A DNA stretch of 64,000 nucleotides, from NCBI GenBank assembly GCA_036245805.1, contig BTRK01000003.1:20859292-20923291 (forward strand). The letters are read 5' to 3'. Shown here in pieces: positions 1 through 64,000 of the stretch. The notes under the pieces were generated by a model. The model did no database searches and had not been told where the DNA came from. It saw nothing but the letters and a program-made list of their open reading frames with translations. The first letter of the stretch is position 1; every line of letters starts with the position of its first letter. This DNA is from Pristionchus mayeri. Taxonomy: Eukaryota > Nematoda > Chromadorea > Rhabditida > Neodiplogasteridae. The position numbers and the translations under genes are program-made.

Positions 1-4
1 TTTT

Positions 5-29
5 CGAACTTTCTGGAACATTCTAGAAG
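5..29. promoter_or_regulatory. Archetype five-pentamer heat shock element
   Basis: GAA at 6, TTC at 11, GAA at 16, TTC at 21 and GAA at 26 form five perfect alternating pentamers at exact 5-bp spacing, followed by an imperfect TTT at 31. Three alternating nGAAn units are the established minimum for an HSF trimer. This form recurs in every monomer that combines CGAAC with CTTTCTGG. The match is read directly; binding is inferred. It is given as the type example, since listing every monomer would add nothing. Confidence 0.8.
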
Positions 30-131
30 CTTTGGAACATTTTCGAACTTTCTGGAACATTCTAGAAGCTTTAGAACATTTTCGAACTTTCTGGAACATT
101 CTAGAAGCTTTGGAACATTTTCGAACTTTAT

Positions 132-146
132 GGAACATTCTAGAAG
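132..146. promoter_or_regulatory. Archetype three-pentamer HSE of the common monomer
   Basis: The commonest monomer has CTTTATGG, so the second pentamer reads TTA rather than TTC. It keeps GAA at 133, TTC at 138 and GAA at 143 as a perfect three-unit element centred on the palindrome TTCTAGAA. A further GAA at 123 remains in register, separated by the imperfect TTA unit. Confidence 0.75.
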
Positions 147-156
147 CTTTGGAACA

Positions 157-195
157 TTTTCGAACTTTATGGAACATTCTAAAAGCTTTGGAACA
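157..195 (+). repeat. K-type variant monomer (CTAAAAGC)
   Basis: First example of a recurrent monomer with CTAAAAGC in place of CTAGAAGC (the A run begins at 181). The change turns the third core pentamer GAA into AAA and removes the XbaI site but not HindIII. Only GAA-TTC remains perfect around the core, so HSF affinity should fall. K-type monomers recur at fixed places inside higher-order repeats. Confidence 0.9.
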
Positions 196-273
196 TTTTC
201 GAACTTTCTGGAACATTCTAGAAGCTTTAGAACATTTTCGAACTTTCTGGAACATTCTAGAAGCTTTGGAACA

Positions 274-312
274 TTTTCAAACTTTCGGGAACATTCTAGA
301 AGCTTTAGAACA
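274..312 (+). repeat. Q-type variant monomer (CAAACTTTCGGG)
   Basis: First example of the most diagnostic variant. CGAAC becomes CAAAC, losing the CpG and the BstBI site, and CTGG becomes CGGG, gaining a CpG about eight bases downstream. The two changes travel together, so they mark one monomer lineage. Four perfect pentamers remain (TTC, GAA, TTC, GAA). Q-type monomers occur in the first 9.5 kb at intervals that are whole multiples of 39 bp and serve as the best ruler for higher-order periods. Confidence 0.9.
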
Positions 313-3300
313 TTTTCGAACTTTATGGAACATTCTAGAAGCTTTAGAACATTTTCGAACTTTATGGAACATTCTAGAAGCTTTAGAACATTTTCGAACT
401 TTATGGAACATTCTAGAAGCTTTAGAACATTTTCGAACTTTATGGAACATTCTAGAAGCTTTGGAACATTTTCGAACTTTCTGGAACATTCTAGAAGCTT
501 TAGAACATTTTCGAACTTTCTGGAACATTCTAGAAGCTTTAGAACATTTTCGAACTTTATGGAACATTCTAGAAGCTTTGGAACATTTTCGAACTTTATG
601 GAACATTCTAGAAGCTTTGGAACATTTTCGAACTTTATGGAACATTCTAAAAGCTTTGGAACATTTTCGAACTTTCTGGAACATTCTAGAAGCTTTAGAA
701 CATTTTCGAACTTTCTGGAACATTCTAGAAGCTTTGGAACATTTTCAAACTTTCGGGAACATTCTAGAAGCTTTAGAACATTTTCGAACTTTATGGAACA
801 TTCTAGAAGCTTTGGAACATTTTCGAACTTTATGGAACATTCTAGAAGCTTTGGAACATTTTCGAACTTTATGGAACATTCTAAAAGCTTTGGAACATTT
901 TCGAACTTTATGGAACATTCTAGAAGCTTTGGAACATTTTCGAACTTTATGGAACATTCTAGAAGCTTTAGAACATTTTCAAACTTTATGGAACATTCTA
1001 GAAGCTTTAGAACATTTTCGAACTTTCTGGAACATTCTAGAAGCTTTAGAACATTTTCGAACTTTCTGGAACATTCTAGAAGCTTTGGAACATTTTCAAA
1101 CTTTATGGAACATTCTAGAAGCTTTGGAACATTTTCGAACTTTATGGAACATTCTAAAAGCTTTGGAACATTTTCGAACTTTCTGGAACATTCTAGAAGC
1201 TTTAGAACATTTTCGAACTTTCTGGAACATTCTAGAAGCTTTGGAACATTTTCAAACTTTCGGGAACATTCTAGAAGCTTTAGAACATTTTCGAACTTTA
1301 TGGAACATTCTAGAAGCTTTGGAACATTTTCGAACTTTATGGAACATTCTAGAAGCTTTGGAACATTTTCGAACTTTATGGAACATTCTAAAAGCTTTGG
1401 AACATTTTCGAACTTTATGGAACATTCTAGAAGCTTTGGAACATTTTCGAACTTTATGGAACATTCTAGAAGCTTTGGAACATTTTCGAACTTTATGGAA
1501 CATTCTAGAAGCTTTGGAACATTTTCGAACTTTATGGAACATTCTAAAAGCTTTGGAACATTTTCGAACTTTATGGAACATTCTAGAAGCTTTGGAACAT
1601 TTTCGAACTTTATGGAACATTCTAGAAGCTTTAGAACATTTTCAAACTTTATGGAACATTCTAGAAGCTTTAGAACATTTTCGAACTTTCTGGAACATTC
1701 TAGAAGCTTTAGAACATTTTCAAACTTTCTGGAACATTCTAGAAGCTTTGGAACATTTTCAAACTTTATGGAACATTCTAGAAGCTTTGGAACATTTTCG
1801 AACTTTATGGAACATTCTAAAAGCTTTGGAACATTTTCGAACTTTCTGGAACATTCTAGAAGCTTTAGAACATTTTCGAACTTTCTGGAACATTCTAGAA
1901 GCTTTGGAACATTTTCAAACTTTCGGGAACATTCTAGAAGCTTTAGAACATTTTCGAACTTTATGGAACATTCTAGAAGCTTTGGAACATTTTCGAACTT
2001 TATGGAACATTCTAGAAGCTTTGGAACATTTTCGAACTTTATGGAACATTCTAAAAGCTTTGGAACATTTTCGAACTTTATGGAACATTCTAGAAGCTTT
2101 GGAACATTTTCGAACTTTATGGAACATTCTAGAAGCTTTAGAACATTTTCAAACTTTCTGGAACATTCTAGAAGCTTTGGAACATTTTCGAACTTTCTGG
2201 AACATTCTAGAAGCTTTGGAACATTTTCAAACTTTCTGGAACATTCTAGAAGCTTTAGAACATTTTCAAACTTTCTGGAACATTCTAGAAGCTTTGGAAC
2301 ATTTTCAAACTTTCGGGAACATTCTAGAAGCTTTAGAACATTTTCGAACTTTATGGAACATTCTAGAAGCTTTAGAACATTTTCGAACTTTATGGAACAT
2401 TCTAGAAGCTTTAGAACATTTTCGAACTTTATGGAACATTCTAGAAGCTTTAGAACATTTTCGAACTTTATGGAACATTCTAGAAGCTTTGGAACATTTT
2501 CGAACTTTCTGGAACATTCTAGAAGCTTTAGAACATTTTCGAACTTTCTGGAACATTCTAGAAGCTTTGGAACATTTTCGAACTTTATGGAACATTCTAA
2601 AAGCTTTGGAACATTTTCGAACTTTATGGAACATTCTAGAAGCTTTGGAACATTTTCGAACTTTATGGAACATTCTAGAAGCTTTAGAACATTTTCGAAC
2701 TTTCTGGAACATTCTAGAAGCTTTGGAACATTTTCAAACTTTCGGGAACATTCTAGAAGCTTTAGAACATTTTCGAACTTTATGGAACATTCTAGAAGCT
2801 TTGGAACATTTTCGAACTTTATGGAACATTCTAGAAGCTTTGGAACATTTTCGAACTTTATGGAACATTCTAAAAGCTTTGGAACATTTTCGAACTTTCT
2901 GGAACATTCTAGAAGCTTTAGAACATTTTCGAACTTTCTGGAACATTCTAGAAGCTTTGGAACATTTTCAAACTTTCGGGAACATTCTAGAAGCTTTAGA
3001 ACATTTTCGAACTTTATGGAACATTCTAGAAGCTTTGGAACATTTTCGAACTTTATGGAACATTCTAGAAGCTTTGGAACATTTTCGAACTTTATGGAAC
3101 ATTCTAAAAGCTTTGGAACATTTTCGAACTTTATGGAACATTCTAGAAGCTTTGGAACATTTTCGAACTTTATGGAACATTCTAGAAGCTTTAGAACATT
3201 TTCAAACTTTCTGGAACATTCTAGAAGCTTTGGAACATTTTCGAACTTTCTGGAACATTCTAGAAGCTTTGGAACATTTTCAAACTTTCTGGAACATTCT

Positions 3301-3357
3301 AGAAGCTTTAGAACATTTTCAAACTTTCTGGAACATTCTAGAAGCTTTGGAACATTT

Positions 3358-4488
3358 TCAAACTTTCGGGAACATTCTAGAAGCTTTAGAACATTTTCGA
3401 ACTTTATGGAACATTCTAGAAGCTTTAGAACATTTTCGAACTTTTTGGAACATTCTAGAAGCTTTAGAACATTTTCGAACTTTATGGAACATTCTAGAAG
3501 CTTTAGAACATTTTCGAACTTTATGGAACATTCTAGAAGCTTTGGAACATTTTCGAACTTTCTGGAACATTCTAGAAGCTTTAGAACATTTTCGAACTTT
3601 CTGGAACATTCTAGAAGCTTTGGAACATTTTCAAACTTTCGGGAACATTCTAGAAGCTTTAGAACATTTTCGAACTTTATGGAACATTCTAGAAGCTTTG
3701 GAACATTTTCGAACTTTATGGAACATTCTAAAAGCTTTGGAACATTTTCGAACTTTATGGAACATTCTAGAAGCTTTGGAACATTTTCGAACTTTATGGA
3801 ACATTCTAGAAGCTTTAGAACATTTTCGAACTTTCTGGAACATTCTAGAAGCTTTGGAACATTTTCAAACTTTCGGGAACATTCTAGAAGCTTTAGAACA
3901 TTTTCGAACTTTATGGAACATTCTAGAAGCTTTGGAACATTTTCGAACTTTATGGAACATTCTAGAAGCTTTGGAACATTTTCGAACTTTATGGAACATT
4001 CTAAAAGCTTTGGAACATTTTCGAACTTTCTGGAACATTCTAGAAGCTTTAGAACATTTTCGAACTTTCTGGAACATTCTAGAAGCTTTGGAACATTTTC
4101 AAACTTTCGGGAACATTCTAGAAGCTTTAGAACATTTTCGAACTTTATGGAACATTCTAGAAGCTTTGGAACATTTTCGAACTTTATGGAACATTCTAGA
4201 AGCTTTGGAACATTTTCGAACTTTATGGAACATTCTAAAAGCTTTGGAACATTTTCGAACTTTATGGAACATTCTAGAAGCTTTGGAACATTTTCGAACT
4301 TTATGGAACATTCTAGAAGCTTTAGAACATTTTCAAACTTTCTGGAACATTCTAGAAGCTTTGGAACATTTTCGAACTTTCTGGAACATTCTAGAAGCTT
4401 TGGAACATTTTCAAACTTTCTGGAACATTCTAGAAGCTTTAGAACATTTTCAAACTTTCTGGAACATTCTAGAAGCTTTGGAACATTT
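3358..4488 (+). repeat. 29-monomer higher-order repeat (1131 bp), copy 1
   Basis: Q-type monomers at 3358, 3631, 3865, 4099 and 4489 are spaced 273, 234, 234 and 390 bp, summing to 1131 bp (29 x 39). The next copy repeats the same spacings. A private CTTTTTGG near 3445 distinguishes this copy. The preceding stretch 2305-3357 looks like a 27-monomer relative of the same unit. Confidence 0.9.
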
Positions 4489-5619
4489 TCAAACTTTCGG
4501 GAACATTCTAGAAGCTTTAGAACATTTTCGAACTTTATGGAACATTCTAGAAGCTTTAGAACATTTTCGAACTTTATGGAACATTCTAGAAGCTTTAGAA
4601 CATTTTCGAACTTTATGGAACATTCTAGAAGCTTTAGAACATTTTCGAACTTTATGGAACATTCTAGAAGCTTTGGAACATTTTCGAACTTTCTGGAACA
4701 TTCTAGAAGCTTTAGAACATTTTCGAACTTTCTGGAACATTCTAGAAGCTTTGGAACATTTTCAAACTTTCGGGAACATTCTAGAAGCTTTAGAACATTT
4801 TCGAACTTTATGGAACATTCTAGAAGCTTTGGAACATTTTCGAACTTTATGGAACATTCTAAAAGCTTTGGAACATTTTCGAACTTTATGGAACATTCTA
4901 GAAGCTTTGGAACATTTTCGAACTTTATGGAACATTCTAGAAGCTTTAGAACATTTTCGAACTTTCTGGAACATTCTAGAAGCTTTGGAACATTTTCAAA
5001 CTTTCGGGAACATTCTAGAAGCTTTAGAACATTTTCGAACTTTATGGAACATTCTAGAAGCTTTGGAACATTTTCGAACTTTATGGAACATTCTAGAAGC
5101 TTTGGAACATTTTCGAACTTTATGGAACATTCTAAAAGCTTTGGAACATTTTCGAACTTTCTGGAACATTCTAGAAGCTTTAGAACATTTTCGAACTTTC
5201 TGGAACATTCTAGAAGCTTTGGAACATTTTCAAACTTTCGGGAACATTCTAGAAGCTTTAGAACATTTTCGAACTTTATGGAACATTCTAGAAGCTTTGG
5301 AACATTTTCGAACTTTATGGAACATTCTAGAAGCTTTGGAACATTTTCGAACTTTATGGAACATTCTAAAAGCTTTGGAACATTTTCGAACTTTATGGAA
5401 CATTCTAGAAGCTTTGGAACATTTTCGAACTTTATGGAACATTCTAGAAGCTTTAGAACATTTTCAAACTTTCTGGAACATTCTAGAAGCTTTGGAACAT
5501 TTTCGAACTTTCTGGAACATTCTAGAAGCTTTGGAACATTTTCAAACTTTCTGGAACATTCTAGAAGCTTTAGAACATTTTCAAACTTTCTGGAACATTC
5601 TAGAAGCTTTGGAACATTT
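4489..5619 (+). repeat. 29-monomer higher-order repeat (1131 bp), copy 2
   Basis: Q-type monomers at 4489, 4762, 4996, 5230 and 5620 reproduce the 273-234-234-390 pattern exactly 1131 bp downstream of copy 1. In the stretch I compared, the visible difference was CTTTATGG here where copy 1 has CTTTTTGG. Confidence 0.9.
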
Positions 5620-7040
5620 TCAAACTTTCGGGAACATTCTAGAAGCTTTAGAACATTTTCGAACTTTATGGAACATTCTAGAAGCTTTAGAACATTTTCG
5701 AACTTTATGGAACATTCTAGAAGCTTTAGAACATTTTCGAACTTTATGGAACATTCTAGAAGCTTTAGAACATTTTCGAACTTTATGGAACATTCTAGAA
5801 GCTTTGGAACATTTTCGAACTTTATGGAACATTCTAGAAGCTTTGGAACATTTTCAAACTTTCTGGAACATTCTGGATGCTTTGGAACATTTTCGAACTT
5901 TATGGAACATTCTAGAAGCTTTGGAACATTTTCGAACTTTCTGGAACATTCTAGAAGCTTTAGAACATTTTCGAACTTTCTGGAACATTCTAGAAGCTTT
6001 GGAACATTTTCAAACTTTCGGGAACATTCTAGAAGCTTTAGAACATTTTCGAACTTTCTGGAACATTCTAGAAGCTTTGGAACATTTTCAAACTTTCGGG
6101 AACATTCTAGAAGCTTTAGAACATTTTCGAACTTTATGGAACATTCTAGAAGCTTTGGAACATTTTCGAACTTTATGGAACATTCTAGAAGCTTTGGAAC
6201 ATTTTCGAACTTTATGGAACATTCTAAAAGCTTTGGAACATTTTCGAACTTTATGGAACATTCTAGAAGCTTTGGAACATTTTCGAACTTTATGGAACAT
6301 TCTAGAAGCTTTAGAACATTTTCAAACTTTCTGGAACATTCTAGAAGCTTTGGAACATTTTCGAACTTTCTGGAACATTCTAGAAGCTTTGGAACATTTT
6401 CAAACTTTCTGGAACATTCTAGAAGCTTTAGAACATTTTCAAACTTTCTGGAACATTCTAGAAGCTTTGGAACATTTTCAAACTTTCGGGAACATTCAAG
6501 AAGCTTTAGAACATTTTCGAACTTTATGGAACATTCTAGAAGCTTTAGAACATTTTCGAACTTTATGGAACATTCTAGAAGCTTTAGAACATTTTCGAAC
6601 TTTATGGAACATTCTAGAAGCTTTGGAACATTTTCGAACTTTATGGAACATTCTAGAAGCTTTGGAACATTTTCAAACTTTCTGGAACATTCTGGATGCT
6701 TTGGAACATTTTCGAACTTTATGGAACATTCTAGAAGCTTTGGAACATTTTCGAACTTTCTGGAACATTCTAGAAGCTTTAGAACATTTTCGAACTTTCT
6801 GGAACATTCTAGAAGCTTTGGAACATTTTCAAACTTTCGGGAACATTCTAGAAGCTTTAGAACATTTTCGAACTTTATGGAACATTCTAGAAGCTTTGGA
6901 ACATTTTCGAACTTTATGGAACATTCTAAAAGCTTTGGAACATTTTCGAACTTTATGGAACATTCTAGAAGCTTTGGAACATTTTCGAACTTTATGGAAC
7001 ATTCTAGAAGCTTTGGAACATTTTCAAACTTTCTGGAACA
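5105..7040 (+). repeat. 50-monomer higher-order repeat (1950 bp), copy 1
   Basis: Q-type landmarks at 5230, 5620, 6088, 6478 and 6829 recur 1950 bp later. The rare TTCAAGAAGC monomer near 6497 is also shared, which argues for a recent duplication rather than chance. Edges are approximate, set where D-type monomers cease to match. Confidence 0.82.
5851..5889 (+). repeat. D-type variant monomer (CTGGATGC)
   Basis: First monomer carrying CTGGATGC in place of CTAGAAGC (5871-5880). It loses both XbaI and HindIII sites and converts the core GAA pentamer to GAT. The same variant recurs sparsely to the right edge, usually followed by CTTTATGG monomers, and marks homologous positions in neighbouring higher-order repeats. 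Confidence 0.9.
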
Positions 7041-7054
7041 TTCTGGATGCTTTG

Positions 7055-8990
7055 GAACATTTTCGAACTTTATGGAACATTCTAGAAGCTTTGGAACATT
7101 TTCGAACTTTCTGGAACATTCTAGAAGCTTTAGAACATTTTCGAACTTTCTGGAACATTCTAGAAGCTTTGGAACATTTTCAAACTTTCGGGAACATTCT
7201 AGAAGCTTTAGAACATTTTCGAACTTTATGGAACATTCTAGAAGCTTTGGAACATTTTCGAACTTTATGGAACATTCTAGAAGCTTTGGAACATTTTCGA
7301 ACTTTATGGAACATTCTAAAAGCTTTGGAACATTTTCGAACTTTATGGAACATTCTAGAAGCTTTGGAACATTTTCGAACTTTATGGAACATTCTAGAAG
7401 CTTTAGAACATTTTCAAACTTTCTGGAACATTCTAGAAGCTTTGGAACATTTTCGAACTTTCTGGAACATTCTAGAAGCTTTGGAACATTTTCAAACTTT
7501 CTGGAACATTCTAGAAGCTTTAGAACATTTTCAAACTTTCTGGAACATTCTAGAAGCTTTGGAACATTTTCAAACTTTCGGGAACATTCTAGAAGCTTTA
7601 GAACATTTTCGAACTTTATGGAACATTCTAGAAGCTTTAGAACATTTTCGAACTTTATGGAACATTCTAGAAGCTTTAGAACATTTTCGAACTTTATGGA
7701 ACATTCTAGAAGCTTTAGAACATTTTCGAACTTTATGGAACATTCTAGAAGCTTTGGAACATTTTCGAACTTTATGGAACATTCTAGAAGCTTTGGAACA
7801 TTTTCAAACTTTCTGGAACATTCTGGATGCTTTGGAACATTTTCGAACTTTATGGAACATTCTAGAAGCTTTGGAACATTTTCGAACTTTCTGGAACATT
7901 CTAGAAGCTTTAGAACATTTTCGAACTTTCTGGAACATTCTAGAAGCTTTGGAACATTTTCAAACTTTCGGGAACATTCTAGAAGCTTTAGAACATTTTC
8001 GAACTTTCTGGAACATTCTAGAAGCTTTGGAACATTTTCAAACTTTCGGGAACATTCTAGAAGCTTTAGAACATTTTCGAACTTTATGGAACATTCTAGA
8101 AGCTTTGGAACATTTTCGAACTTTATGGAACATTCTAGAAGCTTTGGAACATTTTCGAACTTTATGGAACATTCTAAAAGCTTTGGAACATTTTCGAACT
8201 TTATGGAACATTCTAGAAGCTTTGGAACATTTTCGAACTTTATGGAACATTCTAGAAGCTTTAGAACATTTTCAAACTTTCTGGAACATTCTAGAAGCTT
8301 TGGAACATTTTCGAACTTTCTGGAACATTCTAGAAGCTTTGGAACATTTTCAAACTTTCTGGAACATTCTAGAAGCTTTAGAACATTTTCAAACTTTCTG
8401 GAACATTCTAGAAGCTTTGGAACATTTTCAAACTTTCGGGAACATTCAAGAAGCTTTAGAACATTTTCGAACTTTATGGAACATTCTAGAAGCTTTAGAA
8501 CATTTTCGAACTTTATGGAACATTCTAGAAGCTTTAGAACATTTTCGAACTTTATGGAACATTCTAGAAGCTTTGGAACATTTTCGAACTTTATGGAACA
8601 TTCTAGAAGCTTTGGAACATTTTCAAACTTTCTGGAACATTCTGGATGCTTTGGAACATTTTCGAACTTTATGGAACATTCTAGAAGCTTTGGAACATTT
8701 TCGAACTTTCTGGAACATTCTAGAAGCTTTAGAACATTTTCGAACTTTCTGGAACATTCTAGAAGCTTTGGAACATTTTCAAACTTTCGGGAACATTCTA
8801 GAAGCTTTAGAACATTTTCGAACTTTATGGAACATTCTAGAAGCTTTGGAACATTTTCGAACTTTATGGAACATTCTAAAAGCTTTGGAACATTTTCGAA
8901 CTTTATGGAACATTCTAGAAGCTTTGGAACATTTTCGAACTTTATGGAACATTCTAGAAGCTTTGGAACATTTTCAAACTTTCTGGAACA
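7055..8990 (+). repeat. 50-monomer higher-order repeat (1950 bp), copy 2
   Basis: Landmarks at 7180, 7570, 8038, 8428 and 8779 match copy 1 at an offset of 1950 bp, including the private TTCAAGAAGC near 8447. Identity breaks at about 8991, where copy 1 has CTGGATGC and this copy has CTAGAAGC. Confidence 0.82.
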
Positions 8991-9504
8991 TTCTAGAAGC
9001 TTTAGAACATTTTCAAACTTTCTGGAACATTCTAGAAGCTTTGGAACATTTTCAAACTTTCGGGAACATTCTAGAAGCTTTAGAACATTTTCGAACTTTA
9101 TGGAACATTCTAGAAGCTTTAGAACATTTTCGAACTTTATGGAACATTCTAGAAGCTTTGGAACATTTTCGAACTTTATGGAACATTCTAGAAGCTTTAG
9201 AACATTTTCGAACTTTATGGAACATTCTAGAAGCTTTGGAACATTTTCGAACTTTATGGAACATTCTGGATGCTTTGGAACATTTTCGAACTTTATGGAA
9301 CATTCTAGAAGCTTTGGAACATTTTCGAACTTTCTGGAACATTCTAGAAGCTTTAGAACATTTTCGAACTTTCTGGAACATTCTAGAAGCTTTGGAACAT
9401 TTTCAAACTTTCGGGAACATTCTAGAAGCTTTAGAACATTTTCGAACTTTATGGAACATTCTAGAAGCTTTGGAACATTTTCGAACTTTATGGAACATTC
9501 TAGA

Positions 9505-10322
9505 AGCTTTTTAACATTTTCGAACTTTATGAAACATTCTAAAAGCTTTGGAACATTTTCGAACTTTATGGAACATTCTAAAAGCTTTGGAACATTTTCG
9601 AACTTTATGGAACATTCTAGAAGCTTTGGAACATTTTCAAACTTTCGGGAACATTCTAGAAGCTTTAGAACATTTTCGAACTTTATGGAACATTCTAGAA
9701 GCTTTGGAACATTTTCAAACTTTCGGGAACATTCTAGAAGCTTTGGAACATTTTCGAACTTTATGGAACATTCTAAAAGCTTTGGAACATTTTCGAACTT
9801 TATGGAACATTCTAGAAGCTTTGGAACATTTTCGAACTTTATGGAACATTCTAAAAGCTTTGGAACATTTTCGAACTTTATGGAACATTCTAGAAGCTTT
9901 GGAACATTTTCGAACTTTATGGAACATTCTAGAAGCTTTGGAACATTTTCAAACTTTCTGGAACATTCTAGAAGCTTTAGAACATTTTCAAACTTTCTGG
10001 AACATTCTAGAAGCTTTGGAACATTTTCAAACTTTCGGGAACATTCTAGAAGCTTTAGAACATTTTCGAACTTTATGGAACATTCTGGATGCTTTGGAAC
10101 ATTTTCGAACTTTATGGAACATTCTAGAAGCTTTGGAACATTTTCGAACTTTATGGAACATTCTAAAAGCTTTGGAACATTTTCGAACTTTATGGAACAT
10201 TCTAGAAGCTTTGGAACATTTTCAAACTTTCGGGAAATTCTAGAAGCTTTAGAACATTTTCGAACTTTATGGAACATTCTAGAAGCTTTGGAACATTTTC
10301 GAACTTTATGGAACATTCTAGA
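9505..10322 (+). repeat. 818-bp repeat with private GCTTTTTAAC monomer
   Basis: Begins with GCTTTTTAAC followed by TATGAAACATT (9531), both unique to this spot and to 10325-10353, exactly 818 bp on (21 x 39 minus 1). The missing base is the CGGGAAATTC deletion near 10236. That deletion is the first net indel in the window: the first 10.2 kb is perfectly 39-bp phased. Confidence 0.85.
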
Positions 10323-12560: not shown

Positions 12561-13535
12561 TCAAACTTTCGGGAACATTCTAGAAGCTTTAGAACATTTT
12601 CGAACTTTATGGAACATTCTAGAAGCTTTGGAACATTTTCGAACTTTATGGAACATTCTAAAAGCTTTGGAACATTTTCGAACTTTATGGAACATTCTAA
12701 AAGCTTTGGAACATTTTCGAACTTTATGGAACATTCTAGAAGCTTTGGAACATTTTCGAACTTTATGGAACATTCTAGAAGCTTTAGAACATTTTCAAAC
12801 TTTCTGGAACATTCTAGAAGCTTTAGAACATTTTCGAACTTTATGGAACATTCTAGAAGCTTTAGAACATTTTCGAACTTTATGGAACATTCTAGAAGCT
12901 TTGGAACATTTTCGAACTTTATGGAACATTCTGGATGCTTTGGAACATTTTCGAACTTTATGGAACATTCTAGAAGCTTTGGAACATTTTCGAACTTTAT
13001 GGAACATTCTAGAAGCTTTGGAACATTTTCAAACTTTCTGGAACATTCTAGAAGCTTTAGAACATTTTCAAACTTTCTGGAACATTCTAGAAGCTTTGGA
13101 ACATTTTCAAACTTTCGGGAACATTCTAGAAGCTTTAGAACATTTTCGAACTTTATGGAACATTCTAGAAGCTTTAGAACATTTTCGAACTTTATGGAAC
13201 ATTCTAGAAGCTTTGGAACATTTTCAAACTTTCGGGAACATTCTAGAAGCTTTAGAACATTTTCGAACTTTATGGAACATTCTAGAAGCTTTGGAACATT
13301 TTCAAACTTTCTGGAACATTCTAAAAGCTTTGGAACATTTTCGAACTTTATGGAACATTCTAGAAGCTTTGGAACATTTTCGAACTTTATGGAACATTCT
13401 GGATGCTTTGGAACATTTTCGAACTTTATGGAACATTCTAGAAGCTTTGGAACATTTTCGAACTTTCTGGAACATTCTAGAAGCTTTAGAACATTTTCGA
13501 ACTTTCTGGAACATTCTAGAAGCTTTGGAACATTT
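12561..13535 (+). repeat. 25-monomer unit (975 bp), first tandem copy
   Basis: Starts at a Q-type monomer and contains two adjacent K-type monomers, a CTGGATGC monomer and a run of CAAACTTTCTGG monomers. All of these recur 975 bp downstream. Confidence 0.85.
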
Positions 13536-15287: not shown

Positions 15288-15304
15288 TTTTATGCTTTGG
15301 AACA
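15288..15304 (+). repeat. 17-bp truncated monomer (first of three)
   Basis: CATTTTATGCTTTGGAAC is best explained by a 22-bp internal deletion of a D-type monomer, joining CATTTT to ATGCTTTGG. The deletion shifts the 39-bp phase, so it marks descent precisely. It recurs at 20022-20038 and 22050-22066. Confidence 0.85.
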
Positions 15305-21530: not shown

Positions 21531-21756
21531 CTTTAGAACATTTTCGAACTTTCTGGAACATTCTAGAAGCTTTGGAACATTTTCAAACTTTCTGGAACAT
21601 TCTAGAAGCTTTAGAACGTTTTCGAACTTTATGGAACATTCTAGAAGCTTTGGAACATTTTCAAACTTTCTGGAACATTCTGGATGCTTTGGAACATTTT
21701 CGAACTTTATGGAACATTCTAGAAGCTTTGGAACATTTTCGAACTTTCTGGAACAT

Positions 21757-53067: not shown

Positions 53068-53917
53068 TTCACTTTATGGAACATTCTAGAAGCTTTGGAA
53101 CATTTTCAAACTTTCGGGAACATTCTAGAAGCTTTAGAACATTTTCGAACTTTATGGAACATTCTAGAAGCTTTGGAACATTTTCGATCTTTATGGAACA
53201 TTCTAGAAGCTTTGGAACATTTTCGAACTTTCTGGAACATTCTAGAAGCTTTGGAACATTTTCGAACTTTATGGAACATTCTAAAAGCTTTGGAACATTC
53301 TAGAAGCTTTGGAACATTTTCACTTTATGGAACATTCTAGAAGCTTTGGAACATTTTCGAACTTTATGGAACATTCTAGAAGCTTTGGAACATTTTCGAA
53401 CTTTCTGGAACATTCTAGAAGCTTTAGAACATTTTCGAACTTTATGGAACATTCTAGAAGCTTTGGAACATTTTCGAACTTTATGGAACATTCTAGAAGC
53501 TTTAGAACATTTTCGAACTTTCTGGAACATTCTAGAAGCTTTAGAACATTTTCGAACTTTATGGAACATTCTAGAAGCTTTGGAACATTTTCACTTTATG
53601 GAACATTCTAGAAGCTTTGGAACATTTTCAAACTTTCGGGAACATTCTAGAAGCTTTAGAACATTTTCGAACTTTATGGAACATTCTAGAAGCTTTGGAA
53701 CATTTTCGATCTTTATGGAACATTCTAGAAGCTTTGGAACATTTTCGAACTTTCTGGAACATTCTAGAAGCTTTAGAACATTTTCGAACTTTATGGAACA
53801 TTCTAGAAGCTTTAGAACATTTTCGAACTTTTTGGAACATTCTAGAAGCTTTGGAACATTTCGAACTTTATGGAACATTCTAAAAGCTTTGGAACATTCT
53901 AGAAGCTTTGGAACATT
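53068..53917 (+). repeat. 850-bp compound unit, copy 1
   Basis: CACTTTATGG monomers at 53068, 53319, 53590 and 53918 give sub-intervals of 251, 271 and 328 bp. A CGATCTTTATGG variant (near 53708; also seen upstream near 53187) is shared with copy 2. Confidence 0.85.
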
Positions 53918-54729
53918 TTCACTTTATGGAACATTCTAGAAGCTTTGGAACATTTTCGAACTTTATGGAACATTCTAGAAGCTTTGGAACATTTTCGAAC
54001 TTTCTGGAACATTCTAGAAGCTTTAGAACATTTTCGAACTTTATGGAACATTCTAGAAGCTTTAGAACATTTTCGAACTTTTTGGAACATTCTAGAAGCT
54101 TTGGAACATTTTCGAACTTTATGGAACATTCTAAAAGCTTTGGAACATTCTAGAAGCTTTGGAACATTTTCACTTTATGGAACATTCTAGAAGCTTTGGA
54201 ACATTTTCGAACTTTATGGAACATTCTAGAAGCTTTGGAACATTTTCGAACTTTCTGGAACATTCTAGAAGCTTTAGAACATTTTCGAACTTTATGGAAC
54301 ATTCTAGAAGCTTTGGAACATTTTCGAACTTTATGGAACATTCTAGAAGCTTTAGAACATTTTCGAACTTTCTGGAACATTCTAGAAGCTTTAGAACATT
54401 TTCGAACTTTATGGAACATTCTAGAAGCTTTGGAACATTTTCACTTTATGGAACATTCTAGAAGCTTTGGAACATTTTCAAACTTTCGGGAACATTCTAG
54501 AAGCTTTAGAACATTTTCGAACTTTATGGAACATTCTAGAAGCTTTGGAACATTTTCGATCTTTATGGAACATTCTAGAAGCTTTAGAACATTTTCGAAC
54601 TTTATGGAACATTCTAGAAGCTTTAGAACATTTTCGAACTTTTTGGAACATTCTAGAAGCTTTGGAACATTTTCGAACTTTATGGAACATTCTAAAAGCT
54701 TTGGAACATTCTAGAAGCTTTGGAACATT
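53918..54729 (+). repeat. 850-bp compound unit, copy 2 (812 bp)
   Basis: Sub-intervals of 251, 271 and 290 bp. It lacks one monomer, and its third interval lacks the 1-bp deletion of copy 1 (ACATTTCG at 53861). It shares CGATCTTTATGG near 54558. Confidence 0.85.
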
Positions 54730-55507
54730 TTCACTTTATGGAACATTCTAGAAGCTTTGGAACATTTTCGAACTTTATGGAACATTCTAGAAGCTTTGGA
54801 ACATTTTCGAACTTTCTGGAACATTCTAGAAGCTTTAGAACATTTTCGAACTTTATGGAACATTCTAGAAGCTTTAGAACATTTTCGAACTTTTTGGAAC
54901 ATTCTAGAAGCTTTGGAACATTTTCGAACTTTATGGAACATTCTAAAAGCTTTGGAACATTCTAGAAGCTTTGGAACATTTTCACTTTATGGAACATTCT
55001 AGAAGCTTTGGAACATTTTCGAACTTTATGGAACATTCTAGAAGCTTTGGAACATTTTCGAACTTTCTGGAACATTCTAGAAGCTTTAGAACATTTTCGA
55101 ACTTTATGAACATTCTAGAAGCTTTAGAACATTTTCGAACTTTTTGGAACATTCTAGAAGCTTTGGAACATTTTCGAACTTTATGGAACATTCTAAAAGC
55201 TTTGGAACATTTTCGAACTTTATGGAACATTCTAGAAGCTTTAGAACATTTTCGAACTTTCTGGAACATTCTAGAAGCTTTAGAACATTTTCGAACTTTA
55301 TGGAACATTCTAGAAGCTTTGGAACATTTTCGAACTATATGGAACATTCTAGAAGCTTTGGAACATTTTCAAACTTTCTGGAACATTCTGGATGCTTTGG
55401 AACATTTTCGAACTTTATGGAACATTCTAGAAGCTTTAGAACATTTTCGAACTTTATGGAACATTCTAGAAGCTTTGGAACATTTTCGAACTTTATGGAA
55501 CATTCAC

Positions 55508-56007
55508 NNNNNNNNNNNNNNNNNNNNNNNNNNNNNNNNNNNNNNNNNNNNNNNNNNNNNNNNNNNNNNNNNNNNNNNNNNNNNNNNNNNNNNNNNNNNN
55601 NNNNNNNNNNNNNNNNNNNNNNNNNNNNNNNNNNNNNNNNNNNNNNNNNNNNNNNNNNNNNNNNNNNNNNNNNNNNNNNNNNNNNNNNNNNNNNNNNNNN
55701 NNNNNNNNNNNNNNNNNNNNNNNNNNNNNNNNNNNNNNNNNNNNNNNNNNNNNNNNNNNNNNNNNNNNNNNNNNNNNNNNNNNNNNNNNNNNNNNNNNNN
55801 NNNNNNNNNNNNNNNNNNNNNNNNNNNNNNNNNNNNNNNNNNNNNNNNNNNNNNNNNNNNNNNNNNNNNNNNNNNNNNNNNNNNNNNNNNNNNNNNNNNN
55901 NNNNNNNNNNNNNNNNNNNNNNNNNNNNNNNNNNNNNNNNNNNNNNNNNNNNNNNNNNNNNNNNNNNNNNNNNNNNNNNNNNNNNNNNNNNNNNNNNNNN
56001 NNNNNNN
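55508..56007. other. Assembly gap, 500 N
   Basis: Exactly 500 N. A round number is the convention of scaffolding software for a gap of unknown size, so the missing length may be anything. Satellite of the same phase class and orientation lies on both sides. The flanks look ragged: the left ends CATTCAC where CATTCTA is expected, and the right begins GTAGCTTT where GAAGCTTT is expected. Confidence 0.99.
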
Positions 56008-59000
56008 GTAGCTTTGGAACATTTTCGAACTTTCTGGAACATTCTAGAAGCTTTAGAACATTTTCGAACTTTATGGAACATTCTAGAAGCTTTTAGAACA
56101 TTTTCGAACTTTTTGGAACATTCTAGAAGCTTTGGAACATTTTCGAACTTTATGGAACATTCTAAAAGCTTTGGAACATTTTCGAACTTTATGGAACATT
56201 CTAGAAGCTTTAGAACATTTTCGAACTTTCTGGAACATTCTAGAAGCTTTGGAACATTTTCGAACTTTCTGGAACATTCTAGAAGCTTTAGAACATTTTC
56301 GAACTTTATGGAACATTCTAGAAGCTTTAGAACATTTTCGAACTTTTTGGAACATTCTAGAAGCTTTGGAACATTTTCGAACTTTATGGAACATTCTAAA
56401 AGCTTTGGAACATTCTAGAAGCTTTGGAACATTTTCACTTTATGGAACATTCTAGAAGCTTTGGAACATTTTCGAACTTTATGGAACATTCTAGAAGCTT
56501 TGGAACATTTTCGAACTTTCTGGAACATTCTAGAAGCTTTAGAACATTTTCGAACTTTATGGAACATTCTAGAAGCTTTAGAACATTTTCGAACTTTTTG
56601 GAACATTCTAGAAGCTTTGGAACATTTTCGAACTTTATGGAACATTCTAAAAGCTTTGGAACATTCTAGAAGCTTTGGAACATTTTCACTTTATGGAACA
56701 TTCTAGAAGCTTTGGAACATTTTCGAACTTTATGGAACATTCTAGAAGCTTTGGAACATTTTCGAACTTTCTGGAACATTCTAGAAGCTTTAGAACATTT
56801 CGAACTTTATGGAACATTCTAGAAGCTTTGGAACATTTTCGAACTTTCTGGAACATTCTAGAAGCTTTAGAACATTTTCGAACTTTATGGAACATTCTAG
56901 AAGCTTTAGAACATTTTCGAACTTTTTGGAACATTCTAGAAGCTTTAGAACATTTTCGAACTTTATGGAATATTCTAGAAGCTTAGAACATTTTCGAACT
57001 TTTTGGAACATTCTAGAAGCTTTGGAACATTTTCGAACTTTATGGAACATTCTAAAAGCTTTGGAACATTCTAGAAGCTTTTGGAACATTTTCACTTTAT
57101 GGAACATTCTAGAAGCTTTGGAACATTTTCGAACTTTATGGAACATTCTAGAAGCTTTGGAACATTTTCGAACTTTCTGGAACATTCTAGAAGCTTTAGA
57201 ACATTTTCGAACTTTATGGAACATTCTAGAAGCTTTAGAACATTTTCGAACTTTTTGGAACATTCTAGAAGCTTTGGAACATTTTCGAACTTTATGGAAC
57301 ATTCTAAAAGCTTTGGAACATTTTCGAACTTTATGGAACATTCTAGAAGCTTTAGAACATTTTCGAACTTTCTGGAACATTCTAGAAGCTTTAGAACATT
57401 TTCGAACTTTATGGAACATTCTAGAAGCTTTAGAACATTTTCGAACTTTATGGAACATTCTAGAAGCTTTGGAACATTTTCGAACTTTATGGAACATTCT
57501 AGAAGCTTTGGAACATTTTCGAACTTTATGGAACATTCTAGAAGCTTTAGAACATTTTCGAACTTTCTGGAACATTCTAGAAGCTTTGGAACATTTTCGA
57601 ACTTTATGGAACATTCTAGAAGCTTTAGAACATTTTCAACTTTCTGGAACATTCTAGAAGCTTTAGAACATTTTCGAACTTTATGGAACATTCTAGAAGC
57701 TTTGGAACATTTCGAACTTTCTGGAACATTCTGGATGCTTTGGAACATTTTCGAACTTTATGGAACATTCTAGAAGCTTTGGAACATTTTCGAACTTTAT
57801 GGAACATTCTAGAAGCTTTGGAACATTTTCGAACTTTCTGGAACATTCTAGAAGCTTTGGAACATTTTCAAACTTTCGGGAACATTCTAGAAGCTTTAGA
57901 ACATTTTCGAACTTTATGGAACATTCTAGAAGCTTTGGAACATTTTCGAACTTTCTGGAACATTCTAGAAGCTTTAGAACATTTTCGAACTTTATGGAAC
58001 ATTCTAGAAGCTTTAGAACATTTTCGAACTTTTTGGAACATTCTAGAAGCTTTGGAAACATTTTCGAACTTTATGGAACATTCTAAAAGCTTTGGAACAT
58101 TCTAGAAGCTTTGGAACATTTTCACTTTATGGAACATTCTAGAAGCTTTGGAACATTTTCGAACTTTATGGAACATTCTAGAAGCTTTGGAACATTTTCG
58201 AACTTTCTGGAACATTCTAGAAGCTTTAGAACATTTTCGAACTTTATGGAACATTCTAGAAGCTTTAGAACATTTTCGAACTTTTTGGAACATTCTAGAA
58301 GCTTTGGAACATTTTCGAACTTTATGGAACATTCTAAAAGCTTTGGAACATTCTAGAAGCTTTGGAACATTTTCACTTTATGGAACATTCTAGAAGCTTT
58401 GGAACATTTTCGAACTTTATGGAACATTCTAGAAGCTTTGGAACATTTTCGAACTTTCTGGAACATTCTAGAAGCTTTAGAACATTTTCGAACTTTATGG
58501 AACATTCTAGAAGCTTTAGAACATTTTCGAACTTTTTGGAACATTCTAGAAGCTTTGGAACATTTTCGAACTTTATGGAACATTCTAAAAGCTTTGGAAC
58601 ATTTTCAAACTTTCGGGAACATTCTAGAAGCTTTAGAACATTTTCGAACTTTATGGAACATTCTAGAAGCTTTGGAACATTTTCGAACTTTATGGAACAT
58701 TCTAGAAGCTTTAGAACATTTTCAAACTTTCTGGAACATTCTAGAAGCTTTAGAACATTTTCGAACTTTATGGAACATTCTAGAAGCTTTGGAACATTTT
58801 CGAACTTTCTGGAACATTCTAGAAGCTTTGGAACATTTTCGAACTTTATGGAACATTCTAGAAGCTTTAGAACATTTTCGAACTTTCTGGAACATTCTAG
58901 AAGCTTTAGAACATTTTCGAACTTTATGGAACATTCTAGAAGCTTTGGAACATTTTCACTTTATGGAACATTCTAGAAGCTTTGGAACATTTTCAAACTT

Positions 59001-62000
59001 TCGGGAACATTCTAGAAGCTTTAGAACATTTTCGAACTTTATGGAACATTCTAGAAGCTTTGGAACATTTTCGAACTTTATGGAACATTCTAGAAGCTTT
59101 GGAACATTTTCGAACTTTCTGGAACATTCTAGAAGCTTTAGAACATTTTCGAACTTTATGGAACATTCTAGAAGCTTTAGAACATTTTCGAACTTTTTGG
59201 AACATTCTAGAAGCTTTGGAACATTTTCGAACTTTATGGAACATTCTAAAAGCTTTGGAACATTCTAGAAGCTTTGGAACATTTTCACTTTATGGAACAT
59301 TCTAGAAGCTTTGGAACATTTTCGAACTTTATGGAACATTCTAGAAGCTTTGGAACATTTTCGAACTTTCTGGAACATTCTAGAAGCTTTAGAACATTTT
59401 CGAACTTTATGGAACATTCTAGAAGCTTTAGAACATTTTCGAACTTTTTGGAACATTCTAGAAGCTTTGGAACATTTTCGAACTTTATGGAACATTCTAA
59501 AAGCTTTGGAACATTCTAGAAGCTTTGGAACATTTTCACTTTATGGAACATTCTAGAAGCTTTGGAACATTTTCGAACTTTATGGAACATTCTAGAAGCT
59601 TTGGAACATTTTCGAACTTTCTGGAACATTCTAGAAGCTTTAGAACATTTTCGAACTTTATGGAACATTCTAGAAGCTTTAGAACATTTTCGAACTTTTT
59701 GGAACATTCTAGAAGCTTTGGAACATTTTCGAACTTTATGGAACATTCTAAAAGCTTTGGAACATTTTCGAACTTTATGGAACATTCTAGAAGCTTTAGA
59801 ACATTTTCGAACTTTCTGGAACATTCTAGAAGCTTTAGAACATTTTCGAACTTTATGGAACATTCTAGAAGCTTTAGAACATTTTCGAACTTTATGGAAT
59901 ATTCTAGAAGCTTTGGAACATTTCGAACTTTATGGAACATTCTAGAAGCTTTGGAACATTTTCGAACTTTATGGAACATTCTAGAAGCTTTAGAACATTT
60001 TCGAACTTTCTGGAACATTCTAGAAGCTTTGGAACATTTTCGAACTTTATGGAACATTCTAGAAGCTTTAGAACATTTTCAAACTTTCTGGAACTTTCTA
60101 GAAGCTTTAGAACATTTTCGAACTTTATGGAACATTCTAGAAGCTTTGGAACATTTTCGAACTTTCTGGAACATTCTGGATGCTTTGGAACATTTTCGAA
60201 CTTTATGGAACATTCTAGAAGCTTTGGAACATTTTCGAACTTTATGGAACATTCTAGAAGCTTTGGAACATTTTCGAACTTTCTGGAATATTCTAGAAGC
60301 TTTGGAACATTTTCAAACTTTCGGGAACATTCTAGAAGCTTTAGAACATTTTCGAGCTTTATGGAACATTCTAGAAGCTTTGGAACATTTTCGAACTTTC
60401 TGGAACATTCTAGAAGCTTTAGAACATTTTCGAACTTTATGGAACATTCTAGAAGCTTTAGAACATTTTCGAACTTTTTGGAACATTCTAGAAGCTTTGG
60501 AACATTTTCGAACTGTATGGAACATTCTAAAAGCTTTGGAACATTCTAGAAGCTTTGGAACATTTTCACTTTATGGAACATTCTAGAAGCTTTGGAACAT
60601 TTTCGAACTTTATGGAACATTCTAGAAGCTTTGGAACATTTTCGAACTTTCTGGAACATTCTAGAAGCTTTAGAACATTTTCGAACTTTATGGAACATTC
60701 TAGAAGCTTTAGAACATTTTCGAACTTTTTGGAACATTCTAGAAGCTTTGGAACATTTTCGAACTTTATGGAACATTCTAAAAGCTTTGGAACATTCTAG
60801 AAGCTTTGGAACATTTTCACTTTATGGAACATTCTAGAAGCTTTGGAACATTTTCGAACTTTATGGAACATTCTAGAAGCTTTGGAACATTTTCGAACTT
60901 TCTGGAACATTCTAGAAGCTTTAGAACATTTTCGAACTTTATGGAACATTCTAGAAGCTTTAGAACATTTTCGAACTTTTTGGAACATTCTAGAAGCTTT
61001 GGAACATTTTCGAACTTTATGGAACATTCTAAAAGCTTTGGAACATTTTCGAACTTTATGGAACATTCTAGAAGCTTTAGAACATTTTCGAACTTTCTGG
61101 AACATTCTAGAAGCTTTGGAACATTTTCGAACTTTCTGGAACATTCTAGAAGCTTTAGAACATTTTCGAACTTTATGGAACATTCTAGAAGCTTTGGAAC
61201 ATTTTCGAACTTTATGGAACATTCTAGAAGCTTTGGAACATTTTCGAACTTTATGGAACATTCTAGAAGCTTTAGAACATTTTCGAACTTTCTGGAACAT
61301 TCTAGAAGCTTTGGAACATTTTCGAACTTTATGGAACATTCTAGAAGCTTTAGAACATTTTCAAACTTTCTGGAACATTCTAGAAGCTTTAGAACATTTT
61401 CGAACTTTATGGAATATTCTAGAAGCTTTGGAACATTTTCGAACTTTCTGGAACATTCTGGATGCTTTGGAACATTTTCGAACTTTATGGAACATTCTAG
61501 AAGCTTTGGAACATTTTCGAACTTTATGGAACATTCTAGAAGCTTTGGAACATTTTCGAACTTTCTGGAACATTCTAGAAGCTTTGGAACATTTTCAAAC
61601 TTTCGGGAACATTCTAGAAGCTTTAGAACATTTTCGAACTTTATGGAACATTCTAGAAGCTTTGGAACATTTTTACTTTATGGAACATTCTAGAAGCTTT
61701 GGAACATTTTCGAACTTTATGGAACATTCTAGAAGCTTTGGAACATTTTCGAACTTTCTGGAACATTCTAGAAGCTTTAGAACATTTTCGAACTTTATGG
61801 AACATTCTAGAAGCTTTAGAACATTTTCGAACTTTTTGGAACATTCTAGAAGCTTTGGAACATTTTCGAACTTTATGGAACATTCTAAAAGCTTTGGAAC
61901 ATTCTAGAAGCTTTGGAACATTTTCACTTTATGGAACATTCTAGAAGCTTTGGAACATTTTCGAACTTTATGGAACATTCTAGAAGCTTTGGAACATTTT

Positions 62001-64000
62001 CGAACTTTCTGGAACATTCTAGAAGCTTTAGAACATTTTCGAACTTTATGGAACATTCTAGAAGCTTTAGAACATTTTCGAACTTTTTGGAACATTCTAG
62101 AAGCTTTAGAACATTTTCGAACTTTCTGGAACATTCTAGAAGCTTTGGAACATTTTCAAACTTTCTGGAACATTCTAGAAGCTTTAGAACATTTTCAAAC
62201 TTTCTGGAACATTCTAGAAGCTTTAGAACATTTTCGAACTTTATGGAACATTCTAGAAGCTTTGGAACATTTTCGAACTTTCTGGAACATTCTGGATGCT
62301 TTGGAACATTTTCGAACTTTATGGAACATTCTAGAAGCTTTGGAACATTTTCGAACTTTATGGAACATTCTAGAAGCTTTAGAACATTTTCGAACTTTAT
62401 GGAACATTCTAGAAGCTTTAGAACATTTTCGAACTTTATGGAACATTCTAGAAGCTTTGGAACATTTTCGAACTTTATGGATCATTCTAAAACCTTTGGA
62501 ACATTTTCGAACTTTATGGAACATTCTAGAAGCTTTGGAACATTTTCGAACTTTATGGAACATTCTAGAAGCTTTAGAACATTTTCAAACTTTCTGGAAC
62601 ATTCTAGAAGCTTTAGAACATTTTCGAACTTTATGGAACATTCTAGAAGCTTTGGAACATTTTCGAACTTTCTGGAACATTCTGGATGCTTTGGAACATT
62701 TTCGAACTTTATGGAACATTCTAGAAGCTTTGGAACATTTTCGAACTTTATGGAACATTCTAGAAGCTTTAGAACATTTTCGAACTTTATGGAACATTCT
62801 AGAAGCTTTAGAACATTTTCGAACTTTTTGGAACATTCTAGAAGCTTTGGAACATTTTCGAACTTTATGGAACATTCTAAAAGCTTTGGAACATTTTCGA
62901 ACTTTATGGAACATTCTAGAAGCTTTGGAACATTTTCGAACTTTATGGAACATTCTAGAAGCTTTGGAACATTTTCGAAGTTTATGGAACATTCTAAAAG
63001 CTTTGGAACATTTTCGAACTTTCTGGAACATTCTAGAAGCTTTAGAACATTTTCGAACTTTATGGAACATTCTAGAAGCTTTGGAACATTTTCAAACTTT
63101 CTGGAACATTCTGGATGCTTTGGAACATTTTCGAACTTTATGGAACATTCTAGAAGCTTTGGAACATTTTCAAACTTTCGGGAACATTCTAGAAGCTTTA
63201 GAACATTTTCGAACTTTATGGAACATTCTAGAAGCTTTGGAACATTTTCACTTTATGGAACATTCTAGAAGCTTTAGAACATTTTCGAACTTTCTGGAAC
63301 ATTCTGGATGCTTTGGAACATTTTCGAACTTTATGGAACATTCTAGAAGCTTTGGAACATTTTCGAACTTTATGGAACATTCTAGAAGCTTTGGAACATT
63401 TTCGAACTTTATGGAACATTCTAGAAGCTTTGGAACATTTTCAAACTTTATGGAACATTCTAGAAGCTTTAGAACATTTTCGAACTTTCTGGAACATTCT
63501 AGAAGCTTTAGAACATTTTCGAACTTTCTGGAACATTCTAGAAGCTTTGGAACATTTTCAAACTTTCTGGAACATTCTAGAAGCTTTAGAACATTTTCGA
63601 ACTTTCTGGAACATTCTAGAAGCTTTGGAACATTTTCGAACTTTATGGAACATTCTAGAAGCTTTGGAACATTTTCGAACTTTCTGGAACATTCTAGAAG
63701 CTTTAGAACATTTTCGAACTTTATGGAACATTCTAGAAGCTTTGGAACATTTTCGAACTTTATGGAACATTCTAAAAGCTTTGGAACATTTTCGAACTTT
63801 ATGGAACATTCTAGAAGCTTTGGAACATTTTCGAACTTTATGGAACATTCTAGAAGCTTTGGAACATTTTCAAACTTTCTGGAACATTCTGGATGCTTTG
63901 GAACATTTTCGAACTTTATGGAACATTCTAGAAGCTTTGGAACATTTTCGAACTTTATGGAACATTCTAGAAGCTTTAGAACATTTTCGAACTTTATGGA
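56008..64000 (+). repeat. 39-bp HSE-like satellite array, right block
   Basis: Same monomer, same orientation and same variant classes as the left block, continuing to the window edge. It differs in texture: the 251-bp unit with the CACTTTATGG monomer recurs, TTTTTGG variants (CTTTTTGGAAC) are frequent, and single-base indels in T or A runs are common up to about 60 kb. The array has no visible end here, so its true length exceeds the window. Confidence 0.98.
62195..62974 (+). repeat. 10-monomer tandem unit (390 bp) near right edge
   Basis: The CTGGATGC monomers at 62291 and 62681 and their surrounding order recur at 390 bp. The first copy has a private GGATCATTCTAAAACC (62479-62494), the only monomer I noticed with the HindIII site mutated to AAACCT. 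Confidence 0.8.

What the first reader, a model, noticed from the sequence alone, without database searches (positions are those of the whole stretch)
1..64000. A megasatellite built from heat shock elements
The 39-bp monomer is eight alternating nGAAn/nTTCn-type pentamers minus one base. Each common monomer keeps GAA-TTC-GAA at exact 5-bp spacing, and CTTTCTGG monomers keep GAA-TTC-GAA-TTC-GAA. This matches the established HSF-trimer site and is repeated roughly 1,600 times here. Human satellite III recruits HSF1 and is transcribed on heat shock in nuclear stress bodies, so this array may be an independent system of the same kind, or an HSF sink. I do not know of a described satellite with this monomer.
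Basis: partly seen in the sequence, partly recalled or inferred. Interest (0 to 1): 0.88.

Follow-up and report, generated by a model that had tools for sequence, protein, structure and literature searches.

The report
Transposon heat-shock promoter turned megasatellite
A roughly 104,000-base repeat array in a worm genome consists of thousands of copies of a heat-shock control site; the same site sits in front of the mobility gene of a jumping element (a Helitron), and one copy of that element appears to have swelled into this array inside an intron of a kinase gene.

Summary
The whole window is a 39-bp tandem array: 1,648 complete monomers, 83% with a perfect GAA-TTC-GAA site. The monomer's HSF matrix score (13.24) is reached by none of 20,000 shuffles in each of four tests. 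The reading changes. This is the internal tandem repeat of a Helitron transposon, not a free-standing satellite III. The full array spans about 104 kb (2,654 monomers), bounded by the Helitron 3' hairpin end on one side and a 120-bp tandem repeat plus an irregular 5' end on the other, in a 110.6-kb intron of a tyrosine-kinase gene. Rep-bearing relatives with the same 3' end carry the same HSE monomers upstream of Rep: an exact 19-mer precedes 26 of 70 Rep loci, against 0.05 expected. The 39-bp satellite was listed for Pristionchus pacificus in 2013. Helitron HSEs bound by HSF-1 are known in Caenorhabditis and were suggested to be restricted to it. New here: the link between the two outside Caenorhabditis, and one blow-up to thousands of sites. 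HSF binding and heat-induced transcription were not tested. Only 17% of giant-array monomers keep the five-unit HSE, against 99% in a sister array, which speaks against selection for HSF binding there.

The parts
1..55507 (+). 39-bp HSE-type tandem array, monomer GGAACATTCTAGAAGCTTTGGAACATTTTCGAACTTT(A/C)T
   Evidence: TRF; monomer decomposition; HSF matrix scan
55508..56007 (.). 500-base assembly gap (N) inside the array
56008..64000 (+). 39-bp HSE-type tandem array, continuing beyond the window to about C3:20,945,419
50001..62000 (+). less regular stretch of the same array, lag-39 identity 0.84-0.88 per 2-kb bin, with shortened units seen on reading part of it
   Evidence: identity per bin; sequence read 53500-56500

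Best explanation
The window is the middle of one giant copy of a non-autonomous Helitron. Shown by sequence: the element runs, in array orientation, 3' hairpin end (CCAGCCGAT...ATCGACTGG) - CT-rich tract - 39-bp HSE array - 120-bp tandem repeats - 5' end (...AGCGCTTTATATATAGGTATTGA). Read in Helitron orientation this is A^TCAATACC...CGGCTGG^T, that is 5'-TC, 3'-CTRR, between A and T. Rep-bearing relatives share the 3' end and carry HSE monomers upstream of the Rep gene. Inferred: these HSEs make the transposase heat-inducible through HSF, as reported for Helitron1_CE in C. elegans; short HSE runs were amplified in non-autonomous copies; one copy, nested in a kinase intron, grew to about 2,650 monomers. 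The giant array is most likely a by-product that HSF can bind under stress, not a selected stress organelle.
For: 3' hairpin: 28-base core found 101 times exactly, reversed control 0; the 97-nt left end matches at 95-100% in the 40 places scored out of 247 candidates. Junctions: 13 of 13 inspected 3' ends read (A)CCAGCC, that is CTGG^T, though these loci were found with a query holding that end; 5' ends of L030, L043 and the C4 copy read A^TCAATACC. The hairpin folds at -21.7 kcal/mol, z -5.4. Of 12 loci fetched with the end, 10 have HSE words downstream, and in 6 of them (L035, L037-L041) the 120-bp repeats follow within the fetched stretch. Helitron_like_N: 81 matches, 70 loci after merging. 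The 3' end lies downstream of 32 (27 of them at 2,912-2,987 bp); the exact 19-mer TTCCGGAACATTCTAGAAG lies upstream of 26 (23 of them at 2,254-2,420 bp); 20 have both; for the 19-mer, random placement gives a mean of 0.048 loci and at most 1 per trial in 1,000 trials. Of the 10 HSE-bearing Rep loci on C1-C3, 7 also have the exact 5'-end motif upstream within 10 kb. One locus read directly: Rep reading frames, then HSEs, then the same 120-bp repeats. Aligned upstream regions (21 of the 26): 20 run on into at least a second 39-bp monomer. HSF DNA-binding domain present.
Against: No expression or binding data. One complete-looking copy (L030: 3' end, 120-bp repeats and 5' end within 1.4 kb) has no HSE words at all, and L034 has none in the 1.57 kb read. 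The C3 copy's own 5' end is irregular: TATATATAGG at about C3:20,945,978 is followed by GTAGGGG, and a complete ...GGTATTGAT end occurs about 640 bp further on. The CTGG is part of the hairpin arm, whereas textbook Helitrons have the hairpin some 10 bases before CTRR (recalled). The Pif1-type helicase was not checked. 44 of 70 Rep loci lack the exact 19-mer: 12 of these have the shared 3' end, 32 have neither. The 20 fetched upstream regions were chosen by the exact 19-mer, so its conservation there is by construction. Promoter position is inferred from reading frames only. Direction of change (promoter repeat to satellite, not the reverse) is inferred.
Confidence: 0.83

Rival explanations
1. 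An independent analogue of human satellite III: on heat shock HSF binds the array, recruits polymerase and makes functional repeat RNA in nuclear foci.
For: Thousands of strong sites in one place: 4,276 + and 956 - matrix sites in the 120-kb stretch C3:20,830,001-20,950,000 that contains the array; HSF DNA-binding domain; C. elegans Helitrons are bound by HSF-1 and Helitron1_CE RNA rises on heat shock, HSF-1-dependently (PMC6927752, PMC6765114).
Against: No transcription data; chromatin state unknown. Five-pentamer monomers are 456 of 2,654 in the giant array against 71 of 72 in the C4 array; no depletion of change types at HSE core positions in the giant array (44 of 45 possible core types seen, 70 of 72 non-core).
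Confidence: 0.12
2. A selected HSF sink: the array titrates HSF and buffers the heat shock response.
For: 57,282 perfect GAAnnTTCnnGAA sites genome-wide against 2,031 for the reversed pattern; the main C3 array alone holds 3,670 of them.
Against: Same decay argument. The main C3 array is only about 6% of these sites, and Helitron ends and the HSE 19-mer occur on all six large contigs. Nothing shows a dosage effect.
Confidence: 0.08
3. A structural or holocentromere-related satellite whose HSE likeness is incidental.
For: Nematode satellites have been proposed to help kinetochore assembly (PMC3634726, PMC4595182).
Against: The same repeats sit upstream of Rep genes at a near-constant distance; matrix score beyond all shuffles; array bounded by transposon sequences inside a gene intron.
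Confidence: 0.05

Closest known systems
Helitron-borne HSEs of Caenorhabditis (Garrigues et al. 2019, PMC6927752, sections 5, 6, 9 read; Schreiner et al. 2019, PMC6765114, passages)
   Same: Helitrons carrying clustered, tandem, overlapping HSEs; in C. elegans 61.4% of HSEs lie in Helitrons; Helitron1_CE has HSEs and its Rep-helicase RNA is induced by heat through HSF-1.
   Different: That paper found the enrichment only in Caenorhabditis among UCSC genomes with annotated Helitrons and said it may be restricted to that genus (its printed cross-species motif differs from GAAnnTTCnnGAA; whether Pristionchus was in its set was not seen). It reports more than 100 HSEs in eight HelitronY4_CE copies; here one element holds about 2,650 monomers. 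No ChIP or RNA data here, and descent versus independent gain was not tested.
39-base satellite with motif Mo34 GAACATTCTAGAAG of Pristionchus pacificus (Subirana and Messeguer 2013, PMC3634726)
   Same: Same 14-base motif and same period; the paper says Mo34 occurs only in satellites with a 39-base repeat and counts 88 satellites with that repeat length.
   Different: Word searches of its main text for 'heat' and 'helitron' found none. This genome (291 Mb) is larger than P. pacificus (about 169 Mb in that paper), so it is probably another species.
Helitron-related satellites of Caenorhabditis, multiples of AGAANNTTCT (Subirana et al. 2015, PMC4595182, passages)
   Same: Helitron-associated repeats built from a palindromic decamer that has the form of an HSE dimer; one C. 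elegans family has a 40-base repeat.
   Different: Different genus; the word 'heat' does not occur in its main text.
Satellites grown from tandem repeats inside Helitron/Helentron elements (Drosophila DINE-TR1 and montium group; Crassostrea Helentrons, PMC7492417)
   Same: Tandem repeat inside a Helitron-type element expands into satellite arrays.
   Different: I know of no case where that repeat is a transcription-factor site from the transposase promoter (recalled; only search listings, and an editorial passage, seen).
Human satellite III / HSF1 nuclear stress bodies
   Same: Long tandem array rich in HSF sites (recalled and from abstracts).
   Different: Different monomer and origin; binding and transcription untested here.

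Membership tests
Helitron | 5'-TC terminus after host A | tested here: met
   A^TCAATACC in L030, L043 and the C4 copy; 207 exact 5'-end motifs genome-wide, reversed control 0. Irregular in the C3 copy itself, whose complete end lies about 640 bp further on.
Helitron | 3'-CTRR terminus before host T | tested here: met
   CTGG^T in 13 of 13 junctions, loci found with a query that holds this end; the copy near the HSF gene (L047) is cut short here.
Helitron | insertion without target-site duplication (empty sites) | not tested
   no empty site examined
Helitron | hairpin close to the 3' end | tested here: met
   18 paired bases, -21.7 kcal/mol, z -5.4; CTGG lies inside the arm, unlike the textbook position (recalled)
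Helitron | autonomous partner with Rep nuclease domain and the same ends | tested here: met
   32 of 70 Rep loci have the same 3' end downstream; 7 of 10 HSE-bearing and 4 of 7 other such loci on C1-C3 have the exact 5' motif upstream
Helitron | Pif1-type helicase in the autonomous partner | not tested
   search not answered four times
Heat shock element | three or more alternating nGAAn pentamers in 5-bp register | tested here: met
   1,365 of 1,648 window monomers; none of 20,000 shuffles in each of four tests reached the matrix score 13.24
Heat shock element | bound by HSF in the cell | not testable with these tools
   needs ChIP or CUT&RUN
Satellite III-type stress array | HSF-dependent transcription on heat shock | not testable with these tools
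   needs heat-shock RNA-seq and HSF depletion

The most novel reading that the evidence does not exclude
A transposase promoter has become a stress-responsive megasatellite: under heat, HSF loads onto some 2,000 or more clustered sites in one intron, forming a focus that sequesters HSF or drives intronic transcription, and thereby ties a tyrosine-kinase gene and the genome's HSF pool to Helitron biology.
Probability: 0.2. Interest if true: 0.88.

Novelty: new variant of a known kind. Interest (0 to 1): 0.74.

Why it matters
It gives a transcription-factor satellite a traceable likely birth: HSEs beside the transposase gene of an autonomous Helitron, short runs in non-autonomous copies, then a 104-kb array. 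It extends HSE-carrying Helitrons beyond Caenorhabditis, offers an origin for a Pristionchus satellite, and provides a natural single-locus test of whether thousands of HSF sites in one place alter the heat shock response.

Tried and rejected
Chance resemblance to HSEs: rejected by shuffles and by the position upstream of Rep genes. Selection for HSE integrity in the giant array: tested and not supported. In the C4 array core positions do show fewer kinds of change (1 of 45 against 13 of 72, Fisher P 0.008); in short copies only weakly (13 of 45 against 32 of 72, P 0.07; by columns 11 of 15 against 21 of 24, P 0.24). Short copies: 56 monomers from 8 of 12 loci tried; monomers with fewer than 29 of 39 matches were dropped and 4 loci gave no run of three. 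Monomers within an array are related, so these P values are generous. A core-position list printed was off by one; searches use the right one. Regular higher-order repeat over the full array: best lag 29 monomers, 0.19 identity against 0.12 by chance, no clean order. SH2 domain upstream of the kinase: suspected by eye, no Pfam match for the piece tried. tRNA-like stretch in the inverted repeats: none found by ARAGORN in L012 or L017. Species name: not obtained; genus inferred from GAACATTCTAGAAG with its 39-bp period and, by eye, from AAAGATC and GTGGGCGGAGC words like those listed for P. pacificus. Share of HSEs in clusters: rough extrapolation from the first 100 listed places on C1 (28 clustered, 72 not), suggesting about 90% of 57,282. 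Papers: PMC6927752 sections 5, 6, 9 and passages; PMC3634726 first of four parts and passages; PMC9148306 section 6 and passages; PMC4595182, PMC6765114, PMC9297572, PMC12062965, PMC9071541, PMC11431837 passages; all others search listings only. That the link of HSEs, Helitrons and the Pristionchus satellite is not in print rests on searches, in an open-licence library only. On re-checking I lowered confidence in the main reading from 0.85 to 0.83 because L030 is a copy without HSEs.
Full report
What is there. The window is one 39-bp tandem array from end to end, with a 500-base N gap at 55508-56007. It lies at C3:20,859,292-20,923,291 of a 291-Mb genome in 73 contigs. In the neighbouring sequence the array starts at about C3:20,837,746, is interrupted at about 20,838,525-20,841,907 by an insertion with a reverse-transcriptase frame (PF00078, E 6.9e-37) and an AATG-type tail, and ends at about 20,945,419. 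The main block, 20,841,908-20,945,415, holds 2,654 complete monomers; the window holds 1,648.

Is it a heat shock element repeat? Yes. The monomer GGAAC ATTCT AGAAG CTTT GGAAC ATTTT CGAAC TTT(C/A)T is eight pentamers less one base. With the human HSF1 matrix printed in PMC9148306 (section read; threshold 9 as used there) the monomer scores 13.24; the C. elegans chaperone-gene probes tabulated in that paper score 9.1 to 13.07 (passages). None of 20,000 shuffles in each of four tests reached 13.24. In the window 1,365 of 1,648 monomers keep GAA-TTC-GAA and 275 keep all five pentamers.

What carries it. A second array on C4 (about 2.8 kb, 72 monomers) has the same neighbours on both sides: a hairpin-forming end and a CT-rich tract on one side, 120-bp tandem repeats and a TATATATAGG end on the other. 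The hairpin end occurs on all six large contigs (40 of 247 candidates scored, 95-100% identical; 101 exact copies of its 28-base core). Of the 12 loci fetched with this end (one is the C3 copy itself), 10 have HSE words downstream; in 6 (L035, L037-L041) the 120-bp repeats follow within the fetched 1.57 kb; L030 has 120-bp repeats and a 5' end but no HSE words, and L034 has none. Boundaries read in the other orientation are A^TC...CTGG^T with a terminal hairpin, the signature of a Helitron.

Where the HSEs come from. The genome has 81 Helitron_like_N matches, 70 loci after merging. Thirty-two have the same 3' end downstream and 26 have the exact 19-mer TTCCGGAACATTCTAGAAG upstream, 20 both; random placement gives 0.048 for the 19-mer (the 3'-end list shows 100 of 101 places). 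One locus read directly (L046) shows Rep reading frames on the minus strand, HSEs about 640-750 bp before the outermost long frame, then the 120-bp repeats. Alignment of 21 of the 26 upstream regions shows that 20 run on into at least a second 39-bp monomer, and that a further HSE not used for selection (TTCTAGAATGTTCT) is intact in 19 of 21. So the satellite monomer is also the HSE repeat beside the transposase gene. In C. elegans, Helitron1_CE has HSEs bound by HSF-1 and its Rep-helicase RNA rises on heat shock HSF-1-dependently (PMC6927752, PMC6765114). By analogy the original use of the repeat is heat-inducible transposase expression; this step, and the order promoter first, satellite later, are inferred.

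Can HSF of this animal bind it? The genome has one HSF_DNA-bind match. Joined exons give a domain with E 6.7e-25 in Pfam and 3.1e-26 to human HSF1, with the recognition-helix segment alike by eye. Binding itself is untested.

Does the giant array look selected for HSF binding? Not by sequence. Position C38, needed for the fourth pentamer, is C in 35% of window monomers, against 98% in short copies and 100% in the C4 array. Five-pentamer monomers: 456 of 2,654 in the giant array, 37 of 56 in short copies, 71 of 72 in the C4 array. Core positions are spared in the C4 array (P 0.008), weakly in short copies (P 0.07), not in the giant array.

Genome context. Perfect GAAnnTTCnnGAA occurs 57,282 times against 2,031 for the reversed pattern, and GAACATTCTAGAAG 14,775 times against 4; the main C3 array holds 3,670 and 2,177 of these. 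The array and its Helitron lie in an intron of 110,616 bp (C3:20,836,635-20,947,250, GT-AG by eye) of a minus-strand tyrosine-kinase gene, between the exons with HRDLAARN and DFG; the joined exons give a kinase domain with E 6.7e-68. Inverted 286-bp repeats, 93.7% identical, flank the Helitron inside that intron, suggesting that it landed in an older inverted-repeat element.

Relation to the literature. Mo34 GAACATTCTAGAAG in 39-base satellites is listed for P. pacificus (PMC3634726). Helitron-related Caenorhabditis satellites are multiples of AGAANNTTCT (PMC4595182). HSE-rich Helitrons were suggested to be restricted to Caenorhabditis (PMC6927752). The present data join these: the Pristionchus-type satellite is a Helitron HSE repeat. 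I therefore call it a new variant of a known kind: known principle, new lineage, and an extreme expansion.

Noticed in passing
L047 (C5:22,639,001-22,643,500), HSE run at about C5:22,640,880-22,641,060: A copy of this Helitron family with five HSE monomers, cut short at its 3' tip, lies roughly 2.8 kb upstream of the first ATG of the HSF gene's DNA-binding-domain exon (C5:22,638,124). Chance for one of 101 exact ends within 5 kb of one given gene start is about 0.3%, but this was seen after the fact.
   Followed up: partly
C3:20,836,635-20,947,250 (window lies inside): 110.6-kb intron in a tyrosine-kinase gene, splitting the catalytic domain between HRDLAARN and DFG; reading frame and splice sites look intact by eye.
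   Followed up: partly
C3:20,836,676-20,836,961 and 20,946,933-20,947,218: Inverted 286-bp repeats (93.7%) flank the Helitron; probably an older element into which the Helitron inserted.
   Followed up: partly
array around the window, several frames: The array is open in long frames (e.g. at least 4,452 codons in C3:20,846,645-20,860,000, cut by the end of the stretch) because the 39-bp monomer is 13 codons with few stops; automatic annotation may call false giant genes here.
   Followed up: no
C4:19,279,711-19,295,561; C4:19,368,535-19,377,201; C5:13,319,016-13,326,966; C5:26,074,740-26,077,938; C6:19,549,269-19,568,802: Clusters of the variant TTCCGGAACATTCTAGAAG point to possible further HSE arrays of up to about 20 kb; not read.
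   Followed up: no
L046:4086-8000: The 120-bp repeat beside the HSEs forms an array of at least 3.9 kb in the one autonomous copy read; its role is unknown.
   Followed up: no
L030 (C6:56,674,943 and downstream): A copy with 3' end, 120-bp repeats and 5' end but no HSE words, so the HSE run is not needed for every copy to have moved.
   Followed up: no
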